Virus record (IMG/VR): IMGVR_UViG_3300030102_006960
Span: 3,950-67,949 of that record
Strand: one strand, 5' to 3'
Length of the DNA: 64,000 nucleotides
Source of the DNA: a virus
The stretch's first letter is position 1; each line of letters begins with the position of its first letter. Made by a program: the position numbers and the translations under genes. The notes beneath the pieces were generated by a model, which was not told the DNA's origin, ran no database searches, and saw nothing but the letters and a program-made list of their open reading frames with translations. Below, piece after piece: positions 18,711 to 62,974 of the stretch.

Positions 18711-18742
18711 TTTGTTTTTAACATAAAAAAATAGTATATTTG
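18711..18742 (+). promoter_or_regulatory. Bacteroidota-type promoter, leaderless geometry
   Basis: TTTG (18711-18714), a spacer of exactly 20 nt and TATATTTG (18735-18742) match the Bacteroidota primary sigma consensus. The ATG at 18747 is only 4 nt downstream, placing the expected transcription start at the start codon. Confidence 0.65.
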
Positions 18743-18746
18743 TAAT

Positions 18747-19370
18747 ATGTATATTGGAAATATAGTAACTAAAGATAAATTTTCAGATAAAAAATATAAT
18801 GTTTGTGAAAATATTTCACAAATAAACGATAATTTTATAACATTAATTATTGGTTGGGATACAACTAAAGAAATTTATGGTGAAGAAAATGTTTCAATAC
18901 TAAATAAGAAAATTGACGATAAAACTTTTTGGACTTTTAATAATAATGAAAGAAAAGTAGATTTAGAAATAGACTTAAAAAAATTTCAACACAGATGTTT
19001 GGATTTTATAGATAATAAAAATAGTTATGTTTTTGTTGATTTAATACATGATAATCCTAAAAAAATAAGAAAAATAATAAGAAAAATATATTCATTAAAT
19101 AATATTATTACAATTATTAATGATGATATGGTATATTTATACGATAAAAATTTAGTTTTTGGATTAGACTTAAAAATATTATTATTTTTAGGTTTAGATA
19201 TAGATAAAATTAAACATAAAATAAATCAACTTTCTAAGGTAACTTTATCTGAAAATGAAATATTTAATAAATGTATAGGGTGTGTAGATTATAACAATAA
19301 AAAAATCATACCATACATTTATAGATATGGAACAACAGACAAAAATAATCACACTAGCATCATTTGTTGA
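18747..19370 (+). CDS. Unknown protein, first gene of a small-gene cluster
   Basis: This 207-aa protein has no recognised family. It is rich in Ile, Asn, Asp and Lys, with no membrane segment or signal peptide. An alpha/beta look (ITLIIGWDTTKEIYG, YVFVDLIHDNPKKIRKII, IITIINDDMVYLYD) suggests a small globular enzyme or regulator. It has its own promoter 4 nt upstream of ATG and overlaps the next gene by 44 nt in another frame, which suggests coupled translation. It is the first gene after the structural block and leads towards the replication genes. Confidence 0.6.
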   Translation: MYIGNIVTKDKFSDKKYNVCENISQINDNFITLIIGWDTTKEIYGEENVSILNKKIDDKTFWTFNNNERKVDLEIDLKKFQHRCLDFIDNKNSYVFVDLIHDNPKKIRKIIRKIYSLNNIITIINDDMVYLYDKNLVFGLDLKILLFLGLDIDKIKHKINQLSKVTLSENEIFNKCIGCVDYNNKKIIPYIYRYGTTDKNNHTSIIC

Positions 19371-19740
19371 TGAGGATAGAATAGATGGTTTCAGTGATTA
19401 TATAGAAAAAAGGTTTAAAATACCTAAAGAAAAATTATTTATTTATACTTCCCCGCAAGAAATAGGTAAAAAAATTTTAACATTTAGATTATATTTAAGG
19501 GATGGAAAAAAAATAAATACTAAATCATTTTTCCCTACCACTATCATAACACACAAAAAGGGAGAGTGTTTTTATACTATTAATGCACTTAATAAATTGA
19601 TTGAAAGTGAAAGTAATGGAGAAACAGGTAATTTAAATCATAAAGAACATAAGATAGAATGGGATAAATACCAAAATAAAATGTTGATAACTAAAAAAAA
19701 TGAATTAACTATTATAGATATTAAACGTAATTTTTCTTAA
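19327..19740 (+). CDS. Unknown 137-aa protein
   Basis: The start overlaps the preceding gene by 44 nt in a different frame. The sequence (KIITLASFVDEDRIDGFSDY, FIYTSPQEIGKKILTFRLYL, CFYTINALNKLIESE) looks like a small alpha/beta protein with no cysteine motif, signal or membrane segment. I do not recognise the family. The overlap, unusual in this genome where genes mostly abut, makes co-expression with the 18747 gene likely. A later ATG that removes the overlap would delete the conserved-looking start IITLASF, so the upstream ATG is preferred. Confidence 0.55.
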   Translation: MEQQTKIITLASFVDEDRIDGFSDYIEKRFKIPKEKLFIYTSPQEIGKKILTFRLYLRDGKKINTKSFFPTTIITHKKGECFYTINALNKLIESESNGETGNLNHKEHKIEWDKYQNKMLITKKNELTIIDIKRNFS

Positions 19741-19748
19741 AATTCTTA

Positions 19749-19756
19749 TATTTATA
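19749..19756 (+). promoter_or_regulatory. Candidate late promoter motif TATTTATA
   Basis: The motif lies 15 nt before the ATG at 19772, in the context CTTATATTTATAATAAAAG, between the small unknown gene and the scaffold-like pair. Confidence 0.35.
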
Positions 19757-19771
19757 ATAAAAGACCTTAAT

Positions 19772-19954
19772 ATGGATAATAAAAAAGACATACAAAGAAC
19801 TAAAGATTTAGAAGACTCACTTAATGAATTTCTTAAAGTTAATGAAGAAAAAGAGTGTGAAGGGGAAGAATGTTTAATTAATGATGGTAAAGAAATTGTG
19901 GAAAGAGTTAATAAAGTTTATAAAACTACTGACGGAAGACAATTATTAATATAA
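19772..19954 (+). CDS. Small acidic protein, 60 aa
   Basis: This is a short charged helical protein with a Cys pair (ECEGEEC) and the C-terminal phrase YKTTDGRQLLI. No family is recognised with confidence. It starts 15 nt after a candidate late promoter motif and ends 5 nt before the acidic scaffold-like gene, so the two are probably co-transcribed late. A role in head assembly would fit its charge and neighbour, but this is inference. Confidence 0.55.
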   Translation: MDNKKDIQRTKDLEDSLNEFLKVNEEKECEGEECLINDGKEIVERVNKVYKTTDGRQLLI

Positions 19955-19959
19955 AAAAA

Positions 19960-20691: not shown

Positions 20692-20707
20692 ATAATTAAA
20701 AAAATTA

Positions 20708-20739
20708 TTTGACATATTAACCAATAATGACTATATTTG
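20708..20739 (+). promoter_or_regulatory. Bacteroidota-type promoter P1 of the gp32-type gene, inside a terminator
   Basis: TTTG (20708-20711), a spacer of exactly 20 nt and TATATTTG (20732-20739) give a perfect match. The -7 box occupies the loop of the terminator hairpin at 20719-20756, so promoter and terminator share DNA. Confidence 0.55.
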
Positions 20740-20756
20740 TTCATTATTGGTTTTTT
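20719..20756 (+). terminator. Rho-independent terminator of the upstream operon
   Basis: AACCAATAATGA (20719-20730) is perfectly complementary to TCATTATTGGTT (20741-20752), a 12-bp stem with a 10-nt loop and a run of six T ending at 20756. It follows the stop of the acidic gene by 28 nt and insulates the gp32-type gene. Confidence 0.75.
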
Positions 20757-20762
20757 CATGTA

Positions 20763-20793
20763 TTGACTTTTAAGAAAAAACTTATTATATTTA
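20763..20793 (+). promoter_or_regulatory. Bacteroidota-type promoter P2 of the gp32-type gene
   Basis: TTG (20763-20765), a spacer of exactly 20 nt and TATATTTA (20786-20793) form a second promoter directly after the terminator. The ATG at 20826 is 33 nt away, so this transcript has a short A-rich leader. Confidence 0.6.
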
Positions 20794-20825
20794 GAAATAA
20801 TTATTAACATTTAAAAAAAATAGAA

Positions 20826-21722
20826 ATGAGTAACAGTTTAGACGCAATTTTGTCTCAGTATGAAAGTAATACTGAAAACAGTTCAAAAAAACCTAAGTTA
20901 TCTAATGAAGATAGACTTAAGAAGTATTTCACTGAAAAACTTCAACAAGGTGTAAAAAATGCAACTCGAAGATTTAGAATTTTACCTGCAAAAGATGGTA
21001 AGTCTCCATTCGAAGAAGTATATTTTTACGAAAGACAAGTGAATGGTAAATATGAAAAAATTTACTGTAATAAATTAAATGATGGCGAACATTGCCCAAT
21101 GTATGAAGCAAAAGAAGCTTTATTAATGGAGGGTAGTAAAAAAGCTAAAGAAATGGCTAGAGAGTATACTCCTCGTAAATTTTATGTGGTAAAAGGTATT
21201 GATAGAGATAACGAAGATCACGGTGTTAAATTTTGGAGATTTAAACACAATTACACAGGTAATGGTGTTATGGATAAGTTAATGCCACTTTTTAAATTAA
21301 AAGGTGATATTACAGATGCTAGAGAAGGTAGAGATATTATTATAACTACTAACCGTAATGAAAAAGGGTGGAGTGTAGTAACATCTATTATGTGTGATGA
21401 TGTAAGTATGTTAACTGAAGATACTACTAAGGCTAACGATTGGTTTAACAACGAAGAAACATTTAGAGATGTTTACGCTAAAAAATCTACAGAATATTTA
21501 GAGATTGTAGCAAAAAATATGACTCCAGTTTGGGATTCAGAACAAAGTAAATATGTTGCAGAAGAAGAAAGAGAAGAATCAGAAACTGCTTCATTAGAAG
21601 AAGAAATAACTTACTTAAGAGAGGAAACTAAGACTCAGAACTCTGAATCTTCATTTGAAGATGATGATGAAGTTACAGTGACTAATTTAGAAACCGGTGG
21701 TAGTGATGATTTACCATTTTAA
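20826..21722 (+). CDS. gp32: gp32-type single-stranded DNA-binding protein
   Basis: The 298-aa protein coats ssDNA during replication and recombination. A short N-terminal arm precedes a core with the gp32-like phrases RFRILPAKDGKSPFEEVYFY, VKGIDRDNEDHGVKFWRFKH and EGRDIIITTNR. A reduced metal-site region (YCNKL then EHCPMY, about residues 79-90) has two Cys and one His rather than the full zinc set of T4 gp32. The C-terminus is acidic and ends DDLPF, like the tip of bacterial SSB (DDDIPF) and unlike T4 gp32. It heads the UvsX-exonuclease-helicase cluster, has tandem promoters and is followed by a terminator, so it is probably strongly expressed. Confidence 0.85.
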   Translation: MSNSLDAILSQYESNTENSSKKPKLSNEDRLKKYFTEKLQQGVKNATRRFRILPAKDGKSPFEEVYFYERQVNGKYEKIYCNKLNDGEHCPMYEAKEALLMEGSKKAKEMAREYTPRKFYVVKGIDRDNEDHGVKFWRFKHNYTGNGVMDKLMPLFKLKGDITDAREGRDIIITTNRNEKGWSVVTSIMCDDVSMLTEDTTKANDWFNNEETFRDVYAKKSTEYLEIVAKNMTPVWDSEQSKYVAEEEREESETASLEEEITYLREETKTQNSESSFEDDDEVTVTNLETGGSDDLPF

Positions 21723-21743
21723 TTTAATATAAATGTTAAAAGT

Positions 21744-21774
21744 GGGTCATCTTTTTAGGTGACCTATTTTTTTA
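21744..21774 (+). terminator. Terminator after the gp32-type gene
   Basis: GGTCA (21745-21749) pairs with TGACC (21760-21764), extended by a G-T pair, and is followed by a T-rich run (TATTTTTTT). It lies between the gp32-type stop and the uvsX start, so it probably attenuates read-through. Confidence 0.55.
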
Positions 21775-21785
21775 AAAAAAAATAT

Positions 21786-22835: not shown

Positions 22836-22866
22836 TTTTTTATTAATTTTGTAATCAATATGTTAA

Positions 22867-23910: not shown

Positions 23911-23915
23911 AAATT

Positions 23916-24377: not shown

Positions 24378-24412
24378 TGTATATTTATTAATAAATCAAA
24401 AAGGATTAAATA

Positions 24413-27779: not shown

Positions 27780-27787
27780 TATTTATA
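27780..27787 (+). promoter_or_regulatory. Candidate late promoter motif TATTTATA
   Basis: The motif lies 5 nt before the gp25 ATG, in the context AGAATATTTATATACAT. It is the first promoter-like element after the nrdJ terminator and so probably drives the long baseplate operon. Confidence 0.5.
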
Positions 27788-27792
27788 TACAT

Positions 27793-28176
27793 ATGGCAGA
27801 AGAAAGATTTATAAATATTGATTTTCCTTTTAAGAACAGTGAGAGTGGTTTTTACTTTAAATTAAATCAAACTGATAAAGATGCAATTAAGGCTGATTTA
27901 CTTCATCTTTTATTGACTACTAAAGGAGAAAGATTGTATATGCCAGATTTTGGTAGTGATTTAAAAAAGTTTATTTTTGAACCTAATGATAACATAACAC
28001 ATAGTGAAATTAAAGACAATTTAAATGAGACAATAAAAAAATATATACCAAATTTAGTTGTCGATAGTATAGATTTTAAAAAAAATGACATTGAAGAATT
28101 AATAATAGTTGAATTAAAATATACAGTAGTAGATGGTACTTTCGCATCTTCTGATATTTTAGAAATAACACTTTAA
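27793..28176 (+). CDS. gp25: gp25-like baseplate wedge protein
   Basis: The 127-aa product has the typical length (T4 gp25 is 132 aa) and pattern of the gpW/gp25 family. It shows an initial beta strand with DFPF, then IKADLLHLLLTTKGERLYMPDFG followed by LKKFIFEP, and a C-terminal strand pair IVELKYTV. In contractile tails gp25 connects the sheath to the inner wedge core, and the GERLYMPDFG segment is the most conserved part. It is followed 2 nt later by the gp6-like gene, a conserved pairing in contractile systems. Confidence 0.88.
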   Translation: MAEERFINIDFPFKNSESGFYFKLNQTDKDAIKADLLHLLLTTKGERLYMPDFGSDLKKFIFEPNDNITHSEIKDNLNETIKKYIPNLVVDSIDFKKNDIEELIIVELKYTVVDGTFASSDILEITL

Positions 28177-35120: not shown

Positions 35121-35128
35121 TATTTATA
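35121..35128 (+). promoter_or_regulatory. Candidate late promoter motif TATTTATA
   Basis: The motif lies 4 nt before the GTG start at 35133, directly after the stop of the 1547-aa gene. Confidence 0.45.
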
Positions 35129-35132
35129 TATA

Positions 35133-48879: not shown

Positions 48880-48887
48880 TATTTATA
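48880..48887 (+). promoter_or_regulatory. Candidate late promoter motif TATTTATA
   Basis: The motif lies 4 nt before the ATG at 48892, within TATATTTATAAATAATG. This copy overlaps the inverted form TATAAATA, so the site reads as the T4-type late core on both strands. Confidence 0.45.
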
Positions 48888-48891
48888 AATA

Positions 48892-51816
48892 ATGGCGAAT
48901 ATAAAGGGAAATATAATAAACCCAATTAGTGTTAATGGTAAAGTAGTAACCGAAAACGAGATTAGAACTGAAGTAGATATTAATTTAAATATTAACTATC
49001 TAGCTAGTTCTTTATCCCCTTCATTATTTACAGTTAATAGGGCATATTTTATGGATGATCTTTCACAGGTTAAAAATTTAATATTTAAACCCGTACCACA
49101 AAGTATGGGTAATACCGCCTTAACTGATGCACCTATTAACAAACTATGTTTATTTAATTATGAATTAGATGAAAATGAAAATTTAATTGATAAAGAAATT
49201 TTTGCAAATATCCCTATGCAATATATAGATGGTGGTAAAACTTATGAACACTATGGTGCGATAAGTGAAAAAAAGATTTATTTAGGTTGGGAGCCTGTAA
49301 GTAATGAAGATAAGTATTCACATGAAGAAAGATCAGATGTTTATGGTTTTGATTATCCACAATTTACACCTAGAGGAACACGAAAAATACCTATTTCCGG
49401 TAGTAATGACACACTATGTGGTCCAGTAACTTTTGACAATAATGAATATACTTATGATAGATTAAATTATAATTGGTTGTTTGGGCAGAGAGCTGGTATA
49501 AGTTTCGATCCCATAAAAAGTGGGGCAACTCCTGTTGTGATAAGTGGTGCAGTAGTATCACAAGAAGGATGTAGTAGTATATCTAATCAAGAAGGTAATT
49601 TATTATTTTATACTGATGGTGAAACAGTTTTTACTAGTGCTAATACTATTATGCAACAAGGGGCTAATTTGAGAAGTTCAGGTACTTCTACTCAATCTAG
49701 TATAATCGTACCTCGACCAAATAGTAATGAGTATTATATATTTACTACTGACTTTGAAGGTAACCCTAATGGTTTTGAATATAGTTTAGTGGATATGAAT
49801 AGGGCAGGTGGAGATGGTAAAATTATTTTTAAAAATATGCCTTTAATTAGTACCCCTATTTGTGAAAAAGTTACCGCTTGTTCTCATTTTAATGAAACTG
49901 ATTATTGGGTTATAACACACACTAGTGGAGATTCTAAATTTTATTCGTTTAGGGTAAAGAGTGGTGGTATAGCATCTGCAGTAATAAGTGATACAGGTAC
50001 TACATATAATACTAATAGGGGGTACATGAAAACGTCACCAGATAGTAGTAAATTAGTTTCACTATTTTATGATGAGAACCTAATCCAAATATTAGATTTT
50101 AATAATACAGGTGGTACATTGTCTAATGAGTTATTAATAAGTGGTGACACATTTTTTATAAACGGACCTTATGGTTTAGAATTTTCATCCGATTCTTCTA
50201 AATTCTATGTAAGTGATGGTGCATCCAATAAAATAATACAATATGATTTAACTTACACTTCTTCTACTGAAATGGTAGATAATAGTATTATTGTGGCTGA
50301 CTTACCTATTACTGCTAGTTTAGGTGCGTTACAAATGGGTCCTGATGAAAAAATATATGTTGCTGATTATCTAAAAGATTTTTTACACATTATACATAGA
50401 CCTAACGGATTAGGGGTACAATGTAATTTTGAAGAAGAAGGGTTTTCATTAACAGGTATCAGTACAGGTATTACGTCCACATGGGGATTACCAAATGTTA
50501 TAACTAGTAAGACATTATCTTGTGATAGATATGTTTATATAAGTGATCGTGATAGAACTCCTTTTGAGTTTGACTTAATATTAAATGACGTTTCAAATGT
50601 CATACAACCAAATAAATTGAATTTCACTGCAGAAATTTATTCTTTTGATTGTGAGAGAGGTGTATTTAATGATAATCCCGTTTTAGTAGAGGATTTTGAT
50701 TATACTTTATTTAGTGGAGAAAGTGGTACTACATTAACAATACCTTTAAATGAAATAGATGAGGGGGAATTTATAATAAAAGGATATTTTGATTATCCTA
50801 TTAAAACATTAATACAAAAAGAATTAGGTAGAAGAAGAAATAGTGTTAATAACTATAAAAGAGGTACGGAATATAATTTATATAATCCCGAAACAGATTG
50901 GTACTTTTTAAATCTTTTTGAAGCGGACGAACCAACCTTCATTAATGAGCCAGGAGAACCTAATACCATCAGTAATTTAAGAGTAACTTCATTTAAAACT
51001 GAATCTGGGGACACTAGATTTTTTTATAACTCTTTATCAGATCCCTTAGTGTCTTATAATGGGGTAATTCAATCAAAAGGGGTTGAATATAGTGCTAATA
51101 CAGACACACCTAATGCATTTTATATAGACTTTTTTACACCAACATTAGCAGATAGAATGGTTACGTTAGCATTTGTGGAGGACGGTAATCCAAATGAATT
51201 ATCAATTGATAATTATACTGTAACTGAACCTATTTCTTCAGGACCTACAGGACAACAAGGGAAAGAAGATAAATTATACTATAATACTACTCAACAAACA
51301 TATGAGTATTATTTACCGGTTGATGCAATAGGTGATGTAGGGTTAACTTTAAATGGTAACCAACTTTCATATAATATAGAGTATATGAGATCAGATACAG
51401 ACCCTAGAAGACTAATAATTTTAGTAGAAATTAAAAAAGGTGATTTAATTCAAGTGTTTTTTAATCCTATTAGTGGTGTATTTGGAAGTGTGGAAACAAA
51501 TAAACCTGAGTTATCTTGGGTAATACCTAATGCACCTACAATATGTCAAGAAGGATTATTTACTATAGAAGTTACAGATGTAAGTGACGAAGATTTTAAG
51601 GACGTAAAATATATTGCATCTACACCTTATGTATTAGGACAAAATAATTATTCTTTGATTATTGATTTAAGTGAAGCGGTTGCTGGTGATAAATTAATTT
51701 ATAGAGTTAAAAACCAAAAATTATATACACCTATTGTTGGGGAAATAATAACAAGTGTTACCTATAGTACGACAATTCCTATAGAAATTGTTACAAATAG
51801 AGGAAATATTTATTAA
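48892..51816 (+). CDS. Tail/receptor-binding protein with flavobacterial-type beta-propeller
   Basis: The 974-aa product has an N-terminal phage-type region (1-190), a beta-propeller (about 192-535) and a C-terminal beta-rich part. The propeller carries the series seen in flavobacterial secreted or gliding-associated surface proteins: NYNWLFGQRAGISFD, EGCSSISNQEGNLLFYTDG, STQSSIIVPRPNS, YYIFTTD, the pattern YWVITH, GYMKTSPDSSKL, YGLEFSSDSSKFYVSD and WGLPNVI. In host proteins this fold sits in large secreted adhesin-like proteins. Fusion to a tail protein suggests receptor or surface-glycan binding. It lies before the two collar-like proteins. The domain is recognised with good confidence; the receptor-binding role is inferred. 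Confidence 0.7.
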   Translation: MANIKGNIINPISVNGKVVTENEIRTEVDINLNINYLASSLSPSLFTVNRAYFMDDLSQVKNLIFKPVPQSMGNTALTDAPINKLCLFNYELDENENLIDKEIFANIPMQYIDGGKTYEHYGAISEKKIYLGWEPVSNEDKYSHEERSDVYGFDYPQFTPRGTRKIPISGSNDTLCGPVTFDNNEYTYDRLNYNWLFGQRAGISFDPIKSGATPVVISGAVVSQEGCSSISNQEGNLLFYTDGETVFTSANTIMQQGANLRSSGTSTQSSIIVPRPNSNEYYIFTTDFEGNPNGFEYSLVDMNRAGGDGKIIFKNMPLISTPICEKVTACSHFNETDYWVITHTSGDSKFYSFRVKSGGIASAVISDTGTTYNTNRGYMKTSPDSSKLVSLFYDENLIQILDFNNTGGTLSNELLISGDTFFINGPYGLEFSSDSSKFYVSDGASNKIIQYDLTYTSSTEMVDNSIIVADLPITASLGALQMGPDEKIYVADYLKDFLHIIHRPNGLGVQCNFEEEGFSLTGISTGITSTWGLPNVITSKTLSCDRYVYISDRDRTPFEFDLILNDVSNVIQPNKLNFTAEIYSFDCERGVFNDNPVLVEDFDYTLFSGESGTTLTIPLNEIDEGEFIIKGYFDYPIKTLIQKELGRRRNSVNNYKRGTEYNLYNPETDWYFLNLFEADEPTFINEPGEPNTISNLRVTSFKTESGDTRFFYNSLSDPLVSYNGVIQSKGVEYSANTDTPNAFYIDFFTPTLADRMVTLAFVEDGNPNELSIDNYTVTEPISSGPTGQQGKEDKLYYNTTQQTYEYYLPVDAIGDVGLTLNGNQLSYNIEYMRSDTDPRRLIILVEIKKGDLIQVFFNPISGVFGSVETNKPELSWVIPNAPTICQEGLFTIEVTDVSDEDFKDVKYIASTPYVLGQNNYSLIIDLSEAVAGDKLIYRVKNQKLYTPIVGEIITSVTYSTTIPIEIVTNRGNIY

Positions 51817-54065: not shown

Positions 54066-54076
54066 ATTATAAAGAA

Positions 54077-56046: not shown

Positions 56047-56078
56047 TTTGGATTTTTAAAATAAAATTCATATATTTG
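56047..56078 (+). promoter_or_regulatory. Bacteroidota-type promoter of the primase gene, leaderless geometry
   Basis: TTTG (56047-56050), a spacer of exactly 20 nt and TATATTTG (56071-56078) lie 4 nt before ATG 56083. The -33 element begins 1 nt after the resolvase stop codon. Confidence 0.65.
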
Positions 56079-56082
56079 TGAA

Positions 56083-57030
56083 ATGTCACAATTAGTTGTA
56101 GAAATCTTAGAAGATGTATTAGGTAATTCTAAAAAACATTATGAAAACAAAAGTCAGATATCTTTTGACTGTCCTGTATGTTCATCAATTAAAGGACTAG
56201 ACTGTGGAGATGGTAAAGGTAATTTAGAAGTTAATTACTATCATCATGTTTATAAATGTTGGGCTTGTTCAGAAACCTATGGTACACATGGGACACTTAA
56301 TAAACTTATTAGGAAGTATGGTAATAAAAACCATATGAAACAATATCAGTTAGTAATACCTGATAATAAAAGGGTTGTAGTAGACAAAGAAAAGGTGGTT
56401 ATAACGGGATTACCTAAAAATTTTACACCACTAACTATAGAAAGGAATGATAGTGGATATCAACAAGCACTACAATATCTTAGTAAAAGAAATATAGGGA
56501 TAGACTTAATTAAAAAATATAATTTAGGTTACGCTAACGTAGGAGATTACAGAAATAGAATTATATTTCCATCATATGACAGTGAAGGTAAGATAAATTA
56601 TTTTTTAGGTAGGAGTTTTGAAAAATACACTAAACTAAAGTATAAAAATCCTGAAGTATCTAAAATGGATATTATATTTAATGAAGGAAAAATTAATTGG
56701 GATTCTAACATTTATTTAGTAGAAGGTGTATTCGATCATATCACCCTACCAAATAGTATTCCTATGTTGGGTAAAGTACTAAATGATTTGTTATTTAAAA
56801 AATTAATAGATAATGCTTCCGCCAAAGTCATAATAGTTTTAGACAACGATGCAGAAAAAGACGCAATTAACCTATATAAAAAATTAGATAGTACTAAATT
56901 GAATGGAAGGGTACTAATGGTATATATGCCTAAACGATTTGATTTATCAGACGTACACCAAAAATTAGGTAGTAAGGGTGTAATTAAATTAATTACTACC
57001 GCAAAACGTATAAAAGAAAGTTTATTATAA
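56083..57030 (+). CDS. gp61: DNA primase (gp61/DnaG type)
   Basis: The 315-aa protein synthesises RNA primers at the fork with the gp41-type helicase. An N-terminal zinc-binding domain has CPVC (Cys30, Cys33) and CWAC (Cys59, Cys62). A Toprim catalytic domain follows: LVEGVFDH with Glu214 and VLDNDAEKDA with Asp254 and Asp256. The phrase GRSFEKYTKLKY matches the basic RNA-polymerase part of DnaG-like primases. The length is close to T4 gp61 (342 aa). It has its own promoter and is transcribed away from the structural block. Confidence 0.87.
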   Translation: MSQLVVEILEDVLGNSKKHYENKSQISFDCPVCSSIKGLDCGDGKGNLEVNYYHHVYKCWACSETYGTHGTLNKLIRKYGNKNHMKQYQLVIPDNKRVVVDKEKVVITGLPKNFTPLTIERNDSGYQQALQYLSKRNIGIDLIKKYNLGYANVGDYRNRIIFPSYDSEGKINYFLGRSFEKYTKLKYKNPEVSKMDIIFNEGKINWDSNIYLVEGVFDHITLPNSIPMLGKVLNDLLFKKLIDNASAKVIIVLDNDAEKDAINLYKKLDSTKLNGRVLMVYMPKRFDLSDVHQKLGSKGVIKLITTAKRIKESLL

Positions 57031-57055: not shown

Positions 57056-57063
57056 TATTTATA
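57056..57063 (+). promoter_or_regulatory. Candidate late-type motif TATTTATA before the endonuclease gene
   Basis: The motif lies 3 nt before the ATG at 57067, in the context ACAAAATATTTATAATT. This places a putative homing endonuclease under the late-type element rather than the sigma-type promoter used by its neighbours. Confidence 0.4.
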
Positions 57064-57066
57064 ATT

Positions 57067-58011
57067 ATGAAGATTATTATAACTGAAAACCAATTTAAAA
57101 AAATTAAAGAAAGAGAGTCTTATGATAGGAGATTAAGTTCAAGATTTCACAAAATTGGAAGAAAGGTTAAGTACACCAATGACGAATTAATTAAGATAGC
57201 AAAAAAATATCGAACTATAAAAGAATGGTTAAATAGTGTAGATAAAAATAGTTATTATGTAGCAAAGAATAGGGTAAAGGTTATGAACACAGATAATGAG
57301 GGTGAGGGAAATAAATTTTGGCGAGAATTAACTTCTGATATGGAACCTGCTGGTTGGTTTGGTGAAAAAGATATATATGTTTATGAATTTACTGATGCGG
57401 ATGGTGATAAACCAATAGCAGCATATATAGGGTTGTCTTGTGATATTGATAGAAGACATTTGGAACACACAACAGATAGTTGTTCTTATAGCAAAAAACA
57501 AGAAAAAACCGCAGTAGGTAAGTTTTTAGAAAGTAACCCACAACTACGTCTTAAACTTAAAAAACTTACACCAGAAAAAGTTGGGTTTAAAGAGGCTAAA
57601 GAATTAGAGTCTTTTTATGAGACTGAGTATATGAATAATGGTTGGCAAATTTTAAATATTGCTAAAACAGGTGCTTTAGGTATGAAGTATTTAAACTCAG
57701 ACGACACTCTAAGAAAAATTGCTTTAAAATATAAAACTAAGACAGAGTGGAAAAATGATGATAGACTTACTTACTGGCAGGCATTTAAAAGAGGTAAAGA
57801 ATTTTGGGAAGATGTAACTTCTCATATGAAACATCATAAAAACTATTTGGATACTGAGGAAGATCTAATAAATATATCTAAAAAATATAATACAATTGAC
57901 GATTGGAAAAATTCTGAGGATGAAGAAGATAAAAAAGCTTATTGGAGGGCATACCGTAGGACCAAACCAGCGGGTCTTTTTTTAAATAAAATATTTTCAC
58001 CTATGTCCTAA
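57067..58011 (+). CDS. GIY-YIG-like endonuclease with repeated DNA-binding motifs
   Basis: The 314-aa protein has a degenerate GIY-YIG domain: YVYEF (104-108), AYIGL (119-123), DRRHLEH (128-134) with the catalytic-type Arg, and a Glu in ELESFYETEY (about 179-188). About three helical repeats flank it, of the form D-x-L-x-x-IA-x-KY-x-T-x-x-x-W followed by Y-x-x-A, at residues about 39-93, 213-258 and 266-302. Similar repeats occur in phage homing-type nucleases. The N-terminus MKIIITENQFKKI matches the recurrent leader discussed in the findings. It sits between primase and a cREC gene with its own motif and terminator, consistent with a mobile endonuclease. Activity is inferred. Confidence 0.65.
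   Translation: MKIIITENQFKKIKERESYDRRLSSRFHKIGRKVKYTNDELIKIAKKYRTIKEWLNSVDKNSYYVAKNRVKVMNTDNEGEGNKFWRELTSDMEPAGWFGEKDIYVYEFTDADGDKPIAAYIGLSCDIDRRHLEHTTDSCSYSKKQEKTAVGKFLESNPQLRLKLKKLTPEKVGFKEAKELESFYETEYMNNGWQILNIAKTGALGMKYLNSDDTLRKIALKYKTKTEWKNDDRLTYWQAFKRGKEFWEDVTSHMKHHKNYLDTEEDLINISKKYNTIDDWKNSEDEEDKKAYWRAYRRTKPAGLFLNKIFSPMS
57958..57983 (+). terminator. Terminator hairpin inside the 3' end of the endonuclease gene
   Basis: AGGACC (57958-57963) pairs with GGTCTT (57973-57978) around a 9-nt loop, followed by a T-run to 57983. It ends about 28 nt before the stop codon, so it would act only if the transcript is not protected by ribosomes. Confidence 0.35.
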
Positions 58012-58038
58012 AATTAACCTTATTATTTCTTATTTTTT

Positions 58039-58070
58039 TTTGTTATAGTTAAAATTTTTTCGTACATTTA
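58039..58070 (+). promoter_or_regulatory. Bacteroidota-type promoter, leaderless geometry
   Basis: TTTG (58039-58042), a spacer of exactly 20 nt and TACATTTA (58063-58070) lie 4 nt before ATG 58075. Confidence 0.55.
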
Positions 58071-58074
58071 TGAT

Positions 58075-58470
58075 ATGAAAAATTATAAACTATTTCTCGA
58101 TGATATCAGGACCCCTTATTGTGTATTTAAATTAACAGTTAATCCATTATATGAAAGTGATAACGATTGGGTTATAGTTAGAGACTACTATCAATTTATT
58201 TCTGCGATTAATAAATTTGGTTTACCAACTCACATATCTTTCGATCATGATCTCTCGTATGATGCATATTTACCAGAAAATCAAAAGGGTGATATTAATT
58301 ATGGTAGTCTGAAAGAAAAAACGGGATATGATGCTTGTAGATGGTTGTGTGAATATTGTTTAGATGAAGGTAAAGATATACCATTTTATTTGGTACATTC
58401 TGCAAATCCTGTGGGTGCAGAAAATATAAAAAAATATTTAGAAAATTTTAAAAAACATTTGGTAAATTAA
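58075..58470 (+). CDS. Cyclic-phosphate processing receiver (cREC)-like protein
   Basis: The 131-aa product has the pattern of stand-alone receiver-like domains linked with cyclic-phosphate or RNA-end processing: LFLDDIRTP near the start, VIVRDYYQF, GLPTHISFDHDLSYD, GYDACRWLCEYC, and a C-terminal VHSANPVGAENIKKYL. The acidic DD pair and FDHD are the likely active or metal residues. The family occurs widely in phages and beside RNA-repair genes. It lies 0.7 kb upstream of two tRNA genes, which fits a tRNA or RNA end-processing role, but no ligase is seen here. Family assignment is fairly firm; substrate is inferred. Confidence 0.7.
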   Translation: MKNYKLFLDDIRTPYCVFKLTVNPLYESDNDWVIVRDYYQFISAINKFGLPTHISFDHDLSYDAYLPENQKGDINYGSLKEKTGYDACRWLCEYCLDEGKDIPFYLVHSANPVGAENIKKYLENFKKHLVN

Positions 58471-58489
58471 AATATTTTTTTTATTTTTA
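58458..58489 (+). promoter_or_regulatory. Bacteroidota-type promoter, leaderless geometry
   Basis: TTTG (58458-58461), a spacer of exactly 20 nt and TATTTTTA (58482-58489) lie 4 nt before ATG 58494. The -33 box lies within the last codons of the cREC gene. Confidence 0.5.
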
Positions 58490-58493
58490 CAAT

Positions 58494-58646
58494 ATGGAAT
58501 TACAAAACATAATAGAGGAATATCACACAACTAATAAGTTTAGATTAATAAAAAGGTATAGACTAATGAAGAAAATTAGATTGTTAATAGATCCCGTTCA
58601 TTTAAAAGGGATACATTCAATATTATATACTATAATTTTTAAATAA
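58494..58646 (+). CDS. Microprotein, 50 aa
   Basis: A short open frame starts 4 nt after a sigma-type -7 box and ends 6 nt before the next gene. The product is basic and helical (MELQNIIEEYHTTNKFRLIK, then YRLMKKIRLLIDP). No family is recognised. The promoter placement is the main reason to accept it as a gene. Small basic early proteins of phages often act on host proteins, which is only a general possibility here. Confidence 0.5.
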   Translation: MELQNIIEEYHTTNKFRLIKRYRLMKKIRLLIDPVHLKGIHSILYTIIFK

Positions 58647-58652
58647 TAAAAT

Positions 58653-58841: not shown

Positions 58842-58873
58842 TTTGTTTTAGTAAAAAATTATTACTATATTTG
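58842..58873 (+). promoter_or_regulatory. Bacteroidota-type promoter, leaderless geometry
   Basis: TTTG (58842-58845), a spacer of exactly 20 nt and TATATTTG (58866-58873) lie 4 nt (AGGT) before ATG 58878. It probably also reads into the second microprotein and the tRNA genes. Confidence 0.65.
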
Positions 58874-58877
58874 AGGT

Positions 58878-59048
58878 ATGGTTAAAATAAAAAATATAAA
58901 AACACTCACTTCACTATACAATAAGGCAGTAAAAGAAGGTAAAAGCGCATTTCACTATGAAGGAAGAAGTATTATACTTTCAGTAGCCAAAGATGATATT
59001 GAACATTTGAATAAAGAGTTAAAAATGATTGAGTGGTTTAAAATATAA
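58878..59048 (+). CDS. Microprotein, 56 aa, paralogue of the next gene
   Basis: A short frame follows a perfect promoter by 4 nt. The product includes LYNKAVKEGKSAFHYEGRSI and ends IEHLNKELKMIEWFKI. It shares the pattern Y-x-x-AV-x-x-GK-x-x-F-x-x-EGR, then AK-x-x-IE-x-x-N, with the gene starting at 59051. No function is known to me. Presence of two copies in tandem and a dedicated promoter supports a real gene. Confidence 0.6.
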   Translation: MVKIKNIKTLTSLYNKAVKEGKSAFHYEGRSIILSVAKDDIEHLNKELKMIEWFKI

Positions 59049-59050
59049 TT

Positions 59051-59215
59051 ATGATTAGTTTAGAAAATATAGATAAGTTTAAATTACAGTATAAAGATGC
59101 AGTAATTAAAGGTAAAGAAATGTTTGTATTTGAAGGTAGAGATGTTCTAACTTCATATGCTAAATATGTTATTGAATATTTTAATAACATACTCGATGCT
59201 CGAGTGGTGGAATAG
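59051..59215 (+). CDS. Microprotein, 54 aa, ends inside tRNA-Leu
   Basis: This frame begins 2 nt after its paralogue. The product (FKLQYKDAVIKGKEMFVFEG, then SYAKYVIEYFNNIL) shares the paralogue's pattern. Its stop TAG at 59213-59215 lies within the D-arm region of the tRNA-Leu gene, so the last 18 nt serve both a protein and a tRNA. No family function is known. Processing of the tRNA would cut the message near its end. Confidence 0.6.
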   Translation: MISLENIDKFKLQYKDAVIKGKEMFVFEGRDVLTSYAKYVIEYFNNILDARVVE

Positions 59216-59281
59216 GTAGACACGCAAGACTTAAAATCTTGTTCCCATTTGGGAGTGCGGGTTCGATTCCCGCTTCGAGTA
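59198..59281 (+). tRNA. tRNA-Leu (anticodon UAA)
   Basis: An acceptor stem GCTCGAG pairs with TTCGAGT (two G-U pairs). The anticodon stem CAAGA/TCTTG encloses loop CTTAAAA with anticodon TAA, and a class II variable arm and T-arm (GCGGG/CCCGC around TTCGATT) follow. CCA is not encoded. TTA is the dominant Leu codon in these AT-rich genes, so the tRNA suits phage codon use. Confidence 0.93.
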
Positions 59282-59287
59282 CATATT

Positions 59288-59361
59288 GGACCGGTAGCTC
59301 AGCTGGATAGAGCATCTGCCTTCTAAGCAGACGGTCGGAGGTTCGAATCCTCCCCGGTTCA
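59288..59361 (+). tRNA. tRNA-Arg (anticodon UCU)
   Basis: The acceptor GGACCGG pairs with CCGGTTC. The D-arm is GCTCAGCTGGATAGAGC, the anticodon stem TCTGC/GCAGA encloses loop CTTCTAA with anticodon TCT, and the T-arm is GGAGG/CCTCC. CCA is not encoded. AGA is the commonest Arg codon in the window. The 3' end overlaps the stop codon of the minus-strand gene by 3 nt and is followed by a T-run that may end transcription. Confidence 0.93.
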
Positions 59362-61167
59362 CTTTTTTTCTTTAAAGTCTGGATTTGGTGCAACAAATGC
59401 TCTGAGTTTAACTTTATCCCAATCTTTTAACTCAGTAGGTGTTTCTTCATCCCACAATTCATCATTATAATCATCTTCATCATAATAATCTTCAGTAGGT
59501 TTATCACCCATTTTTAATATAGACATTGTTCTATGCCACCCTTCTACTAGTTGATAAGTACCATCAGGATTTTGTAGAATAATAACTGGTTCGTTCATTC
59601 CATCATCTCTTCTCATACTCATTTGAGTGTCCATTCGTTCTTCATCTTTTGGTACGTTATATGCATTTATATTACCAAAATCCCTTTGTTCAAACGCCCT
59701 AACTGTACGTTTATCAAAGTCCATTGGGTTTACATTTAAAACTTGTAACTTCCACGGACCTTTTAAATAGTTATACCACCACCCATTTCCATCACCCTTA
59801 ATATAAGGTATTGGATCACCATTATAAGTGTTTAAAATATCTTTCATTGCTGGACGATGACCTGGTGCTCTCATTAGTATGATATTTCTGTAATAATCTT
59901 GTAAAACATATTCTGGTGTATCAGGAAATTCTCTTCTCATTTTTTCATACACTCTTTTGTGGGGATTATTATCTTTATATATTGGAATACTAGTTACCTC
60001 TTCTTCTAACTCCATACCCATTTCATATTTGTTTTTGTTTGGGTTTGCATCGCTTACACTCCAGTATTTTAAATCCTCTTCTATTTTAGATAATTGGCTT
60101 TCACTAATTTTTATTTTTCTTTTTTTAGATTCATCTAAGGAAACAGAAGGCATATATGTCCTTTTAATATCATTACCTACAGTAGTTAAGGCACTCCAGT
60201 GATTACTTTCACTATCTATTTTACCTGCGACATTTTTACCTGTACAATTTGATGTTCCACCATAGACATTATCATTGCTCCCTATCGTAGTTATTGCGGA
60301 GTTAACTTTTTTTAGAGTGTTTGAACCACAAGTATAAGGCTCAACAATATAAATTTTATTTAAGTCTTTTTCACTATTGTTGATTTCGTTTGCCACCCTA
60401 TCTGAGTGTCTACCACCAGCACTAAACATAACTACATAAGGATTATTATGTTTTTTTATTTCTGATAAAGGTGAGGGTACATGTGATAGGGTTATTACAT
60501 TAAAATTATCACCTAAAGCAGACTGTAACATTTCACCTTGTTGTTGGTGTGAATACTTATATTTTTTACCACATTCACCTGCAGAAGAACAACCTGCAAT
60601 AAAAATTACCGGTTCTTTTTCAGTATTTAGTTCCTCTTTTAATATTTTTTTAATACTTTCATTTAAAGTTCGTAATACATCTGCATCTGTATCAAAAACC
60701 TCATCATAATCTCCTTGATGTATTTCATCATCTATGTGAGTTGTTAATTCTGGATTCACCACATCACCATAATCATATTCCCAATCCATTGCGTCTAGGG
60801 CAGTATCACTATCATCTGACACGACAGTATTTTTGATTTCTCTCCAAGAATTTACGTTTTGATAAAATTTAATTTGATACTCTTTCATTTGTGGTACAAC
60901 TACTTCTTCTATAGAAGCAAAATCACCATCTTTATTTAAAACATTGAATAAATTATTTTTATATAAAGCATAAAAATACATAAGTATATCCTTATCTAAT
61001 GCTAAGTTACCTATTATATTAGAATCCATTAAAAGGTTAATATCAGTTTTTTTATTACTTTTTACTCTACCATCCAAAGTTCTATATATTTCTCTTAATA
61101 CTGCAATCTCAAAATTATTGAACGGTTGGGTATCAGTAGTATTTCTTATAATGTCTTTTAATTCCAT
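59359..61167 (-). CDS. Multidomain protein with alpha/beta domain and ParB-like C-terminus
   Basis: This is the only minus-strand gene. The start at 61167 gives 602 aa (MELKDIIRN); an earlier in-frame ATG at 61215 would run across the divergent promoter. Residues about 180-330 form an alpha/beta domain with FIAGCSSAGECGKKYKYSHQ, YVVMFSAGGRHSDRVA and IYIVEPYTCG, like alpha/beta-hydrolase-related phage proteins. Around 347 the phrase KKRKIKISESQLSKI repeats the N-terminal leader of other genes, suggesting a fusion or processing site. The last 90 residues include EPVIILQNPDGTYQLVEGWH and RTMSIL, a ParB/Srx-like pattern. No function is established. Confidence 0.6.
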   Translation of the reverse strand: MELKDIIRNTTDTQPFNNFEIAVLREIYRTLDGRVKSNKKTDINLLMDSNIIGNLALDKDILMYFYALYKNNLFNVLNKDGDFASIEEVVVPQMKEYQIKFYQNVNSWREIKNTVVSDDSDTALDAMDWEYDYGDVVNPELTTHIDDEIHQGDYDEVFDTDADVLRTLNESIKKILKEELNTEKEPVIFIAGCSSAGECGKKYKYSHQQQGEMLQSALGDNFNVITLSHVPSPLSEIKKHNNPYVVMFSAGGRHSDRVANEINNSEKDLNKIYIVEPYTCGSNTLKKVNSAITTIGSNDNVYGGTSNCTGKNVAGKIDSESNHWSALTTVGNDIKRTYMPSVSLDESKKRKIKISESQLSKIEEDLKYWSVSDANPNKNKYEMGMELEEEVTSIPIYKDNNPHKRVYEKMRREFPDTPEYVLQDYYRNIILMRAPGHRPAMKDILNTYNGDPIPYIKGDGNGWWYNYLKGPWKLQVLNVNPMDFDKRTVRAFEQRDFGNINAYNVPKDEERMDTQMSMRRDDGMNEPVIILQNPDGTYQLVEGWHRTMSILKMGDKPTEDYYDEDDYNDELWDEETPTELKDWDKVKLRAFVAPNPDFKEKK

Positions 61168-61198
61168 TTGTTTTTTTAAAAATAAATGCTTATCTTTG
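61167..61198 (+). promoter_or_regulatory. Bacteroidota-type promoter of the PD-(D/E)XK nuclease gene
   Basis: TTTG (61167-61170), a spacer of exactly 20 nt and TATCTTTG (61191-61198) lie 11 nt before ATG 61210. The first T of the -33 box is also the first base of the minus-strand start codon, so the region is divergent. Confidence 0.6.
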
Positions 61199-61209
61199 TA
61201 ATAATAAAT

Positions 61210-62115
61210 ATGCAAAAAATGGAGATTATTAAAGAATTATCCGTATTCAACAATATAAAATATTATGACGAACCTCATACGTATTATATTGATGGAGAGA
61301 AAACAATATCCTGTACTGGTTTCATTCATAAGTTTGAAGAAGACTTTGAATCTAATGTAGATAAACCAGATAAATGGGCAGAAAAACAAGGACATATATA
61401 TAAGGCTAAAAGTATGGCAGATAAGTTTGCACATAAACAAAACTTTTATCCTATGGAAGGTGATCCGTATGATAGACCTGATTACTCTAAACCAAAACCA
61501 TCAGAGGAATGTACTAGTGAAGAAGACATCAAAAAGTTATGGAAGTATAAAAATAATCATGCTACTTTTGAGGGTACAACACTTCACGATTATATTGAGA
61601 ATTATCTAAATAATAAAATAATGCCTTACCCTACTAAAAGTCCTGAAGGATTGGATTTTAGTGAGATAGAAGAAACATATAAGATTATGGAAGGATATTT
61701 CCATAACTTTTACAATGATACAGTAGCTAAAGGTAAGTTAGTACCAATTAAATCAGAGTTAGTGGTTGGTGATAAAGACTATATGTTATGTGGTATGGTG
61801 GATCAGTTATTTTGGAATGAAAGATATGGTACTTTAGAGATATGGGATTGGAAGACTAATACTCGTCTAAATATGAAGGATGATTATGGTAACAAAATGA
61901 AGGAGTGTTTATGGATGTTAGATAAATGTGAATTTAATACATATTCTTTACAACTTAATATCTATAAAAAAATAATTGAGAAAAATACTAACTTAAAGGT
62001 AGGTAGATGTAATTTAGTTTGGTTCAACGAAGACAACCCAAATTATAAAGTTATCAAATGTGCAGACTATAGTGAACATGTAGATAATATGTTAACTACT
62101 TTAATTCCTGCCTAA
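61210..62115 (+). CDS. PD-(D/E)XK nuclease (RecB/Cas4-like)
   Basis: The product has the PD-(D/E)XK core: SELVVGDKDYMLCGMVDQLF with Asp198, LEIWDWKTNT with Asp213 and Lys215, then the Gln-containing helix YSLQLNIYKKI. This matches the RecB/Cas4 style of nuclease. An upstream in-frame ATG (61186) lies inside the promoter and is rejected; ATG 61210 or 61219 (MEIIKELS) is likely the start. It is followed by gp47, so a role in DNA end processing or host DNA degradation is likely, though the substrate is not shown by the sequence. Confidence 0.75.
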   Translation: MQKMEIIKELSVFNNIKYYDEPHTYYIDGEKTISCTGFIHKFEEDFESNVDKPDKWAEKQGHIYKAKSMADKFAHKQNFYPMEGDPYDRPDYSKPKPSEECTSEEDIKKLWKYKNNHATFEGTTLHDYIENYLNNKIMPYPTKSPEGLDFSEIEETYKIMEGYFHNFYNDTVAKGKLVPIKSELVVGDKDYMLCGMVDQLFWNERYGTLEIWDWKTNTRLNMKDDYGNKMKECLWMLDKCEFNTYSLQLNIYKKIIEKNTNLKVGRCNLVWFNEDNPNYKVIKCADYSEHVDNMLTTLIPA

Positions 62116-62120
62116 TCGCG

Positions 62121-62151
62121 TTGTCTTTTTAATAAAAAATCATTATATTTA
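62121..62151 (+). promoter_or_regulatory. Bacteroidota-type promoter of gp47, leaderless geometry
   Basis: TTG (62121-62123), a spacer of exactly 20 nt and TATATTTA (62144-62151) lie 4 nt (AGGT) before ATG 62156. Confidence 0.6.
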
Positions 62152-62155
62152 AGGT

Positions 62156-62974
62156 ATGATAAAAAAATTATTTCACATTGCAGATTTACATTTTAGAACC
62201 TATAATAGACATAATGAATGTAAAGAAGTCTGTAATAAATTCCTCAATGAAGTTAAATTTTATATAGAAGATAACAACTTATCTTTTGAAGAATGTAGAA
62301 TAGTAATTGCGGGAGATATAGTACACCAAAAGATTACTATATCAAATGAGTTAACAATGTTAGTTTCTTGGTTTCTTAATAAATGTAGTGAGTTATGTCC
62401 TGTGGTTTTAATTGCAGGTAATCACGATCTGTTAGAAAATAATAAAGATAGATTAGATTCACTAACACCAATAATAGAAATAATGAATAACCCATATGTT
62501 AACTATATGACTGAAAGTAAGTGTTATTTAGATGAAAATATAGTTTGGTGTTGTTATTCTATATTTGAAGAAAACGCTAGACCCGATATTGATGCTTGTA
62601 GAAAAGAATATGGTAATGACAAGAAGTACATCGGTTTATTTCATGCACCAGTTAATGGTGCAATAACTTCAGTAGGTTTCGAATTTGATGAATCTGCAGA
62701 GTTAAAGCAGTTCGAGGGGTGTGATGCAGTTATTATGGGTGATATACACCATAGACAAAATTTTGTACATAAAGGTATAAATATAACATATTGCGGTAGC
62801 TTTATCCAACAAGATTTTGGTGAGAGGGTATCTGAACACGGTTACTTAATATGGGATGTAGAACATTTAGATTACACGGAACACGATATAGATACAGAAT
62901 ATGGATATTATGTTTTTAAAATAAACTCTTTAGAAGATTTAGAAGTAGGTAAAGAATATCTAACTAACGCTTAA
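62156..62974 (+). CDS. gp47: gp47-like recombination nuclease subunit (SbcD/Mre11 family)
   Basis: The 272-aa metallophosphoesterase has the family motifs HIADLHF (Asp10, His12), IAGDIVHQK (Asp54, His57), IAGNHD (Asn89, His90), LFHAP and GDIHHRQ. In T4, gp46/gp47 resect DNA ends to load UvsX. It is shorter than T4 gp47 (339 aa), lacking part of the C-terminal capping region. The stop shares a base with the ATG of the next gene (TAATG), so they are translationally coupled. Its own leaderless-type promoter lies just upstream. Confidence 0.87.
   Translation: MIKKLFHIADLHFRTYNRHNECKEVCNKFLNEVKFYIEDNNLSFEECRIVIAGDIVHQKITISNELTMLVSWFLNKCSELCPVVLIAGNHDLLENNKDRLDSLTPIIEIMNNPYVNYMTESKCYLDENIVWCCYSIFEENARPDIDACRKEYGNDKKYIGLFHAPVNGAITSVGFEFDESAELKQFEGCDAVIMGDIHHRQNFVHKGINITYCGSFIQQDFGERVSEHGYLIWDVEHLDYTEHDIDTEYGYYVFKINSLEDLEVGKEYLTNA

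What the first reader, a model, noticed from the sequence alone, without database searches (positions are those of the whole stretch)
18711..62158. Host-type promoters placed so that mRNAs begin at the start codon
Ten sites match (T)TG - exactly 20 nt - TAnnTTTR: 9012, 18711, 20708, 20763, 56047, 58039, 58458, 58842, 61167 and 62121. In six (ATG at 18747, 56083, 58075, 58494, 58878, 62156) the -7 box ends exactly 4 nt before ATG. With the Bacteroidota promoter geometry this puts the start of transcription at or within a base or two of the AUG, so these mRNAs would be leaderless. The fixed spacing across unrelated genes is hard to explain otherwise. It suggests a phage-wide early expression mode that bypasses Shine-Dalgarno recognition.
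Basis: partly seen in the sequence, partly recalled or inferred. Interest (0 to 1): 0.8.

Follow-up and report, generated by a model that had tools for sequence, protein, structure and literature searches.

The report
Phage promoters abutting start codons
A group of phages that probably infect Bacteroidota bacteria places promoters so close to many genes that the messenger RNAs should begin at the start codon itself, a layout not seen in the bacterial chromosome stretches compared, which would make these phages a natural test of how such bacteria translate messages without a leader.

Summary
All ten sites exist; six have exactly 4 nt between the -7 box and ATG. The window is part of a 145.8-kb phage record. 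Over 369 homology-declustered genes of 8 related records, TTG-N19..21-TANNTTTR lies 4-6 nt before the start in 14 genes (shuffle mean 0.15), in none at 0-3, in 2 at 7-11 and in 15 at 12-25. Flavobacterial chromosome loci have 0 of 32 sites at 3-6; Flavobacterium phage immuto 0 of 27. Most orthologues of the better-sampled window genes keep the gap; two use GTG, still at gap 4. Published Flavobacterium geometry (4-5 nt from box to RNA start; PMC6847099, passages) puts the RNA start at the AUG. A second box, TATTTATA/T without -33, shows the same pattern: 27 genes at gap 3-5. So leaderless placement is not confined to host-type promoters; 'early' is untested, and 'bypassing Shine-Dalgarno' is moot in hosts that hardly use it. 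The phages encode a sigmaA-like factor, so the reading polymerase is open. No RNA ends were mapped. New variant of a known kind.

The parts
18711..18749 (+). class 1 promoter (TTTG 18711-18714, box 18735-18742), gap 4, ATG 18747 of a 207-aa gene of unknown function
   Evidence: 5 of 5 distinct orthologue upstreams at 39-48% protein identity have the box at gap 4-5
56047..56085 (+). class 1 promoter (box 56071-56078), gap 4, ATG 56083 of the DNA primase gene
   Evidence: 7 of 10 distinct orthologue upstreams at gap 4-5, three at 7-8
58039..58077 (+). class 1 promoter (box 58063-58070), gap 4, ATG 58075 of a 131-aa gene (phrog_1479, unknown function)
   Evidence: 1 of 1 orthologue at gap 4
58458..58496 (+). 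class 1 promoter (box 58482-58489), gap 4, ATG 58494 of a 50-aa ORF (58494-58646)
   Evidence: 3 of 3 near-identical relatives keep it
58842..58880 (+). class 1 promoter (box 58866-58873), gap 4, ATG 58878 of a 56-aa gene
   Evidence: 1 of 3 similar places keeps it, the other two are 42% hits without a box
62121..62158 (+). class 1 promoter (TTG 62121-62123, box 62144-62151), gap 4, ATG 62156 of the SbcD-like nuclease subunit gene
   Evidence: 7 of 8 distinct orthologue upstreams at gap 4
1466..1479 (+). class 2 box TATTTATT at gap 3 before ATG 1477
27780..27795 (+). class 2 box TATTTATA at gap 5 before ATG 27793 (baseplate wedge gene); terminator-like hairpin upstream
35121..35135 (+). class 2 box TATTTATA at gap 4 before GTG 35133 (661-aa gene)
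48880..48894 (+). class 2 box TATTTATA at gap 4 before ATG 48892 (974-aa gene); close variants in relatives
57056..57069 (+). class 2 box TATTTATA at gap 3 before ATG 57067 (314-aa gene, phrog_20046)
61167..61212 (+). class 1 promoter at gap 11 (leadered) before ATG 61210 of an exonuclease-like gene
20708..20828 (+). two leadered class 1 promoters (boxes ending 20739 and 20793) before the ssb (gp32-like) ATG 20826
9012..9043 (+). class 1 promoter 148 nt before ATG 9192 (leadered)

Best explanation
These are promoters placed so that transcription starts at the start codon or within one or two bases of it, giving leaderless or near-leaderless mRNAs. Shown: the gap from box to start codon is sharply set, has a hard lower edge, is kept in most orthologues of the better-sampled genes, and is found with two different boxes: class 1, the Bacteroidota sigmaA type (TTG-N20-TANNTTTR), and class 2, TATTTATA/T without a -33 element. 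Inferred: RNA polymerase, carrying host sigmaA or the phage's own sigmaA-like factor for class 1 and an unknown factor for class 2, starts 4-5 nt after the box, on or next to the A of AUG; a ribosome then takes the 5'-terminal AUG directly. By these boxes 27 of 161 genes of the record would be made this way. Other genes have boxes far enough upstream for a normal leader, and leaders of about 2-7 nt are avoided, presumably because they suit neither route.
For: Gap distribution, 369 declustered genes: class 1 has 0 at 0-3, 9, 4 and 1 at 4, 5 and 6, 2 at 7-11, 15 at 12-25; class 2 has 0 at 0-2, 7, 12 and 8 at 3, 4 and 5, 4 at 6-11, 59 at 12-25; shuffle means are below 0.5 for each single gap. 14 of 34 class 1 and 27 of 110 class 2 sites with gap 0-40 fall in the 3-nt peak (binomial 4e-8 and 2e-8). 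In-gene sense ATGs almost never have them: 7 and 5 of 19,520, against 29 and 56 of 836 called starts. In F. johnsoniae 4-5 nt separate the box from the RNA start, so gap 4-5 means a start on the A of ATG or one base before. Orthologues keep gap 4-5: 5 of 5, 7 of 10 and 7 of 8 for three window genes, two of the primases with GTG at gap 4. Terminator-like hairpins lie within 100 nt upstream of 10 of 27 class 2 and 2 of 14 class 1 leaderless genes, against 5 of 234 genes without a box. Specificity: 0 of 32 class 1 sites at gap 3-6 in flavobacterial loci, 0 of 27 in immuto, 0 of 10 in crAss001.
Against: No RNA 5' ends. The RNA start distance is borrowed from cultured flavobacteria; the phage sigma could shift it, and for class 2 it is unknown. 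Three primase orthologues have gap 7-8, and several leaderless genes outside the window keep the layout in few relatives (82285, 95151, 124826 of G000). Two of the 10 class 2 hairpins overlap the box itself, and leadered genes also have hairpins (15 of 94). 11 and 13 of 2,128 uncalled intergenic ATGs also have class 1 and class 2 boxes at these gaps. Start codons rest on my own simple caller. The declustered set is dominated by G000 and G005 (151 and 140 of 369).
Confidence: 0.78

Rival explanations
1. Genome compaction alone: the promoter is squeezed into the shortest possible intergenic cassette (36 bp from stop codon to ATG in several cases), so the missing leader is a by-product without regulatory meaning. 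This changes the reason, not the leaderless mRNA.
For: Intergenic lengths before class 1 leaderless genes include 36, 36, 36 and 40 nt.
Against: The pattern also occurs behind long intergenic stretches (63, 80, 159 nt before class 1 genes; up to 691 nt before class 2 genes). Immuto, also compact, has no class 1 box at gap 3-6. Compaction does not predict a trough at 7-11.
Confidence: 0.35
2. Class 2 (and the box part of class 1) is a translation-initiation element in the RNA rather than a promoter.
For: SD-less Bacteroidota rely on AT-rich initiation regions; A-runs at gaps 4-10 are among the strongest positional signals in my own 6-mer scan.
Against: Each box has two preferred positions with a trough between, which fits RNA start geometry and not a single ribosome contact; class 1 carries a TTG at a fixed 20 nt; hairpin terminators just upstream require re-initiation of transcription.
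Confidence: 0.07
3. The called start codons are wrong and translation starts at a later in-frame codon behind a normal leader.
For: Starts were chosen by a codon-model caller without RNA or protein data.
Against: For the primase, SbcD and 18747 genes orthologous protein similarity begins at residue 1, and where ATG is lost a GTG stands in its place (alignments starting after residue 4 were dropped there).
Confidence: 0.05
4. Chance matches in AT-rich DNA.
For: Single boxes are common: 244 TANNTTTG in the record, both strands.
Against: Shuffles, the backward pattern, in-gene ATGs and orthologues all speak against it.
Confidence: 0.01

Closest known systems
Thermus phage phiYS40 leaderless middle/late transcripts (review PMC3594737, passage; original paper not held)
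   Same: A phage with many genes on leaderless mRNAs.
   Different: phiYS40 is experimentally shown and lives in a phylum rich in leaderless genes; here it is sequence evidence only, with Bacteroidota-type promoters, two promoter classes and many leadered genes beside the leaderless ones.
Promoter -10 region adjacent to ORFs in Deinococcus-Thermus (PMC12340547, passages; PMC3160421, passages)
   Same: A -10-type box at fixed short distance from the start codon giving leaderless mRNA.
   Different: The box is TAnnnT there; here it is TANNTTTR with TTG at -33, or TATTTATA/T, in a phage. Bacteroidetes/Chlorobi had such a signal in only 1 of 37 genomes in that survey.
Bacteroidota sigmaA promoters and rare host leaderless mRNAs (PMC6847099, PMC9723704, PMC7366714; passages)
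   Same: Same -33/-7 consensus and near 20-nt spacing.
   Different: Hosts: 5.5% leaderless in F. psychrophilum, 3.7% of 5' UTRs under 10 nt in B. thetaiotaomicron, 13% of leaders 10 nt or less in F. johnsoniae. Here 12 of 29 class 1 sites in G000 with gap under 100 are at gap 4-6.
T4-type late promoter (TATAAAT in PMC9004378, passage)
   Same: Class 2 is an AT-rich box without a -33 partner in a T4-like phage, before a baseplate gene among others.
   Different: The sequence is TATTTATA/T; TATAAATA itself has no peak at gap 3-5; factor and timing unknown.

Membership tests
Bacteroidota sigmaA (sigmaABfr) promoter | -7 box TAnnTTTG | tested here: met
   TANNTTTR; the last base is G in 15 and A in 14 of 29 distinct leaderless sites, and G in 29 of 33 host sites
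Bacteroidota sigmaA (sigmaABfr) promoter | TTTG/TTG about 20 nt upstream (-33) | tested here: met
   Required in my class 1; TTTG in 23 of 29 and spacing 20 in 25 of 29 leaderless sites
Bacteroidota sigmaA (sigmaABfr) promoter | RNA start 4-5 nt after the box, made by host sigmaA | not testable with these tools
   No RNA data; the phage also encodes a sigmaA-like factor
Leaderless mRNA genes | Promoter box at RNA-start distance from the start codon | tested here: met
   Gap 4-6 in 14 of 369 declustered genes for class 1, gap 3-5 in 27 of 369 for class 2
Leaderless mRNA genes | Mapped 5' end at the start codon | not testable with these tools
   No transcript data for this phage
phiYS40-like leaderless phage programme | Many genes leaderless in one phage | tested here: met
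   27 of 161 genes in G000 by box position
phiYS40-like leaderless phage programme | Shift of host IF2/IF3 levels during infection | not testable with these tools
   No IF3_C match in the record; host levels cannot be seen
T4-type late promoter (class 2) | TATAAATA consensus at promoter distance | tested here: not met
   Over 8 records TATAAATA has 1 site at gap 3 and none at 4-5, with 6 at gap 11; TATTTATA/T has 57 at gap 3-5

The most novel reading that the evidence does not exclude
A clade of Bacteroidota phages runs a deliberate two-track translation programme: its own sigmaA-like factor and a second, phage-specific promoter class put a sixth or more of its genes on leaderless mRNAs, exploiting an initiation route that Bacteroidota cells rarely use and giving viral messages a separate entry during infection.
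Probability: 0.25. Interest if true: 0.85.

Novelty: new variant of a known kind. Interest (0 to 1): 0.62.

Why it matters
How Bacteroidota ribosomes find start codons without Shine-Dalgarno pairing is still being worked out. A phage clade in which the same promoter stands either at the AUG or well upstream of it, with little in between, gives a sequence-readable test of leaderless initiation in this phylum. It also gives a practical rule for finding true start codons and very short genes in such phages. If RNA ends confirm it, a leaderless phage programme would be shown in a phylum where such mRNAs are rare, and not only in Thermus where they are common.

Tried and rejected
Rejected: chance in AT-rich DNA (shuffles, backward pattern, in-gene ATG controls). 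Not supported: different -33 elements for leaderless and leadered class 1 sites (TTGA in 8 of 29 against 28 of 63, p = 0.17), so I could not assign the two groups to two sigmas. Corrected on the way: I first counted box-only TANNTTTR at gaps 5-6 as class 1; relatives showed that most of those without TTG are the TATTTATA/T type, so class 1 was restricted to sites with TTG. bS21 as the cause: present in G000 and G005, not found in G003, G004, G006 or immuto (some records are fragments), so it does not track the layout. No IF3 C-terminal domain in the record. The operator-like palindrome at the ssb promoter is single-copy among 187 loci. The TTTGTT signal at gap 30 in the unbiased scan (6 against 0.39 expected, p = 3.5e-6) does not survive correction for about 168,000 tests; the TATTTA/ATTTAT signals do.

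Paper searches on leaderless expression in Bacteroidota or their phages: no listed title or abstract start reports it for Bacteroidota phages. I saw listings, plus passages of the papers cited; no paper was read whole. Most subscription papers are outside that library.

Rows left out: G001 and G002 (close to the window's record) and G008 (not fetched after one search failed) are in the strict-pattern count only; 9 of 852 genes with incomplete upstream were dropped before clustering; phi38:1 was pattern-counted only; host comparison uses 32 of the 80 loci, chosen by me by title, mostly Flavobacteriia; hits starting after residue 4 and identical upstreams were dropped; identical sites were counted once.
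Full report
What the window is. The window is bases 3950-67949 of a 145,802-base virus record, G000, 28.7% G+C. It carries a T4-like gene set: gp32-like SSB, UvsX-like recombinase, DnaB-like helicase, primase, SbcD- and SbcC-like nuclease subunits, ribonucleotide reductase and baseplate genes. I fetched the rest of the record in stretches and called 161 genes with a simple codon-model caller of my own. Relatives were found in viral contigs through the primase and SbcD proteins. The host is not identified. A Bacteroidota host is inferred from the promoter type, from a sigma factor 39-43% identical by blastp (42-46% in the genome search) to flavobacterial sigmas, and from short DNA similarity of the recombinase gene to Flavobacterium phage immuto. 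The other phages in the tables have varied hosts, and the SSB had no match at all.

The observation. All ten sites are there, and six have exactly 4 nt between box and ATG. Over the whole record, TTG-N19..21-TANNTTTR (class 1) upstream of called genes peaks at gap 4 (8 genes, plus the uncalled 50-aa ORF at window 58494) and gap 5 (3 genes), with 1 at gap 6, none at 0-3 and a broad group from 11 upwards.

Statistics. I pooled the genes of 8 records of the clade (G000, G003-G007, G009, G010) and kept one gene per homology cluster, 369 in all, 151 from G000 and 140 from G005. Class 1 gaps 0-3, 4, 5, 6, 7-11, 12-25 and 26-59 hold 0, 9, 4, 1, 2, 15 and 9 sites; sixty dinucleotide shuffles give means of 0.16, 0.05, 0.05, 0.05, 0.3, 1.1 and 2.3. 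Fourteen of 34 sites with gap 0-40 lie at 4-6 (binomial against a flat distribution 4e-8). Class 1 at gap 4-6 precedes 29 of 836 called starts but 7 of 19,520 in-gene sense ATGs, 1 of 8,700 antisense ATGs and 11 of 2,128 uncalled intergenic ATGs, which include real starts my caller missed, such as two SbcD orthologues. The strict 38-base pattern occurs 33 times in 10 relatives and once in the backward control; without the two records close to the window it is 14 against 1.

A second class. Some box-only gap 5-6 cases proved to be a different element, TATTTAT[AT], with no -33 partner. It stands at gap 3, 4 and 5 before 7, 12 and 8 of the 369 starts, is absent at 0-2, scarce at 6-11 (4) and abundant at 12-25 (59); shuffle means are 0.35, 0.4, 0.23, 0.88, 1.9 and 4.7. 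It stands at gap 3-5 before 56 of 836 called starts, against 5 of 19,520 in-gene sense ATGs, 12 of 8,700 antisense and 13 of 2,128 uncalled intergenic ones. An unbiased 6-mer scan ranks A-runs near the start and this element, at gaps 4-6 and 13-17, highest; TTTGTT at gap 30, the class 1 -33 element in register with the start codon, appears too but does not survive correction for the number of tests. Class 2 is not enriched before host genes (0 of 486 at gaps 3-6 and 12-25, 1 at 7-11, 3 at 0-2), but is present in immuto at leadered distances (16 at 12-25, 2 at 3-5). So it looks phage-specific. One class 2 leaderless gene of the window is a baseplate wedge gene (27793); of the 10 class 2 leaderless genes scanned it is the only one with a named function, so calling the class 'late' is an inference. 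Class 1 leaderless genes with a named function are primase, SbcD-like, NUDIX hydrolase, DNA methyltransferase and a DNA-binding protein (phrog_624).

Why promoters, and why leaderless. First, in F. johnsoniae the -7 G is at -5 with 4 or 5 nt to the RNA start (PMC6847099, passages), and the F. psychrophilum box lies at -12 to -5 (PMC9723704, passages); gap 4 or 5 therefore puts the start on the A of ATG or one base before. Second, the lower edge of the distribution falls where a shorter gap would cut into the AUG. Third, the trough would be leaders of about 2-7 nt. Fourth, terminator-like hairpins lie within 100 nt upstream of 10 of 27 class 2 and 2 of 14 class 1 leaderless genes, 15 of 94 leadered genes and 5 of 234 genes without a box; two of the ten class 2 hairpins overlap the box and may be spurious. 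Leaving those two out, 10 of 41 leaderless genes against 5 of 234 gives Fisher 3e-6. In G005 at 92933 a class 1 promoter directly follows the T-run of a hairpin.

Conservation. For gene 18747, 5 of 5 distinct orthologue upstreams at 39-48% protein identity have the box at gap 4-5. For the primase 7 of 10 do, two with GTG at gap 4, and three have gap 7-8. For SbcD 7 of 8 have gap 4 and one has lost the box. For 58075 it is 1 of 1, for 58494 3 of 3 (98-100% identical), for 58878 1 of 3. Outside the window the record is patchier: the layout is kept in few relatives for the genes at 82285, 95151 and 124826 of G000, and no orthologue of 125266 was found.

Specificity. In 486 genes of 32 flavobacterial loci, 0 of 32 class 1 sites with gap under 60 lie at 3-6; in immuto 0 of 27, in crAss001 0 of 10, in Cellulophaga phage phi14:2 2 of 5, and in FCL-2, P12002S and lotta 0 of 1 each. 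Box-only counts at gap 4-5 are 5 in P12002S and 3 in phi14:2, so the layout may recur elsewhere at low level. In 8 flavobacterial genomes (26.3 Mb) the strict pattern occurs 40 times against 28 for its control; in 7 named Bacteroidota phages 4 against 2. Published leaderless or short-leader fractions in the phylum are 3.7% to 13%, by differing definitions.

Polymerase and ribosome. The record encodes a 271-aa sigma70 with regions 1.2, 2 and 4 above Pfam cut-offs and a region 3 below it. It was found in 7 of 8 clade records (not in the 60-kb fragment G010) and in none of 6 named phages. Leaderless and leadered class 1 elements do not differ significantly at -33, so the sites cannot be assigned to host or phage sigma. 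The record also encodes a bS21 with a tyrosine that appears to match Y54 of F. johnsoniae (translation; matched by eye). bS21 was found in 1 of 4 relatives searched, so it does not track the layout. Phage bS21 as a modifier of Bacteroidota translation has been proposed in print (PMC9723584, passages; PMC9976891, passages).

What is known and what is new. Leaderless phage programmes exist (phiYS40, passage in PMC3594737); leaderless genes with a promoter box next to the ORF are described in Deinococcus-Thermus (PMC12340547, passages); a survey found leaderless signals in 1 of 37 Bacteroidetes/Chlorobi genomes (PMC3160421, passages). The searches named in Tried and rejected listed no report for Bacteroidota phages. 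I call it a new variant of a known kind: the mechanism is known, while the host group, the use of two promoter classes and the conserved register across a clade appear new.

Limits. No RNA data; host not isolated; some relatives are fragments; start codons rest on my caller and on conservation; early timing and any advantage in infection are untested.

Noticed in passing
window 20721-20750: Perfect inverted repeat CCAATAATGA-N10-TCATTATTGG enclosing the -7 box of the upstream ssb promoter, like an operator; single copy among 187 loci searched exactly.
   Followed up: partly
L003:2801-3613 (G000:C1:70550-71362): Phage sigmaA-like factor with a shortened region 3, found in 7 of 8 clade records and in none of 6 named Bacteroidota phages.
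   Followed up: partly
L005:2815-3006, minus strand (G000:C1:110164-110355): Phage-encoded ribosomal protein bS21 with a tyrosine that appears to match Y54 of F. johnsoniae.
   Followed up: partly
L004:7551-7598 (G000:C1:95100): A 15-codon ORF with its own class 1 box at gap 6 ends just before the ATG of a DNA methyltransferase gene that has a second class 1 promoter inside this ORF.
   Followed up: no
L004:191-1639 (G000:C1:87740): Long, well-matched PHROG 850 'RNA-binding protein' (E 1e-151) behind a leadered class 1 promoter at gap 40.
   Followed up: no
P12002S (L173-L175) and phi14:2 (L072, L167-L169): A few -7 boxes at gap 4-5 (5 and 3 genes, box only), so leaderless placement may recur in other Bacteroidota phages.
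   Followed up: no
window 59198-59362: tRNA-Leu (TAA) and tRNA-Arg (TCT) genes ending where a 618-aa minus-strand ORF (59359-61215) ends.
   Followed up: no
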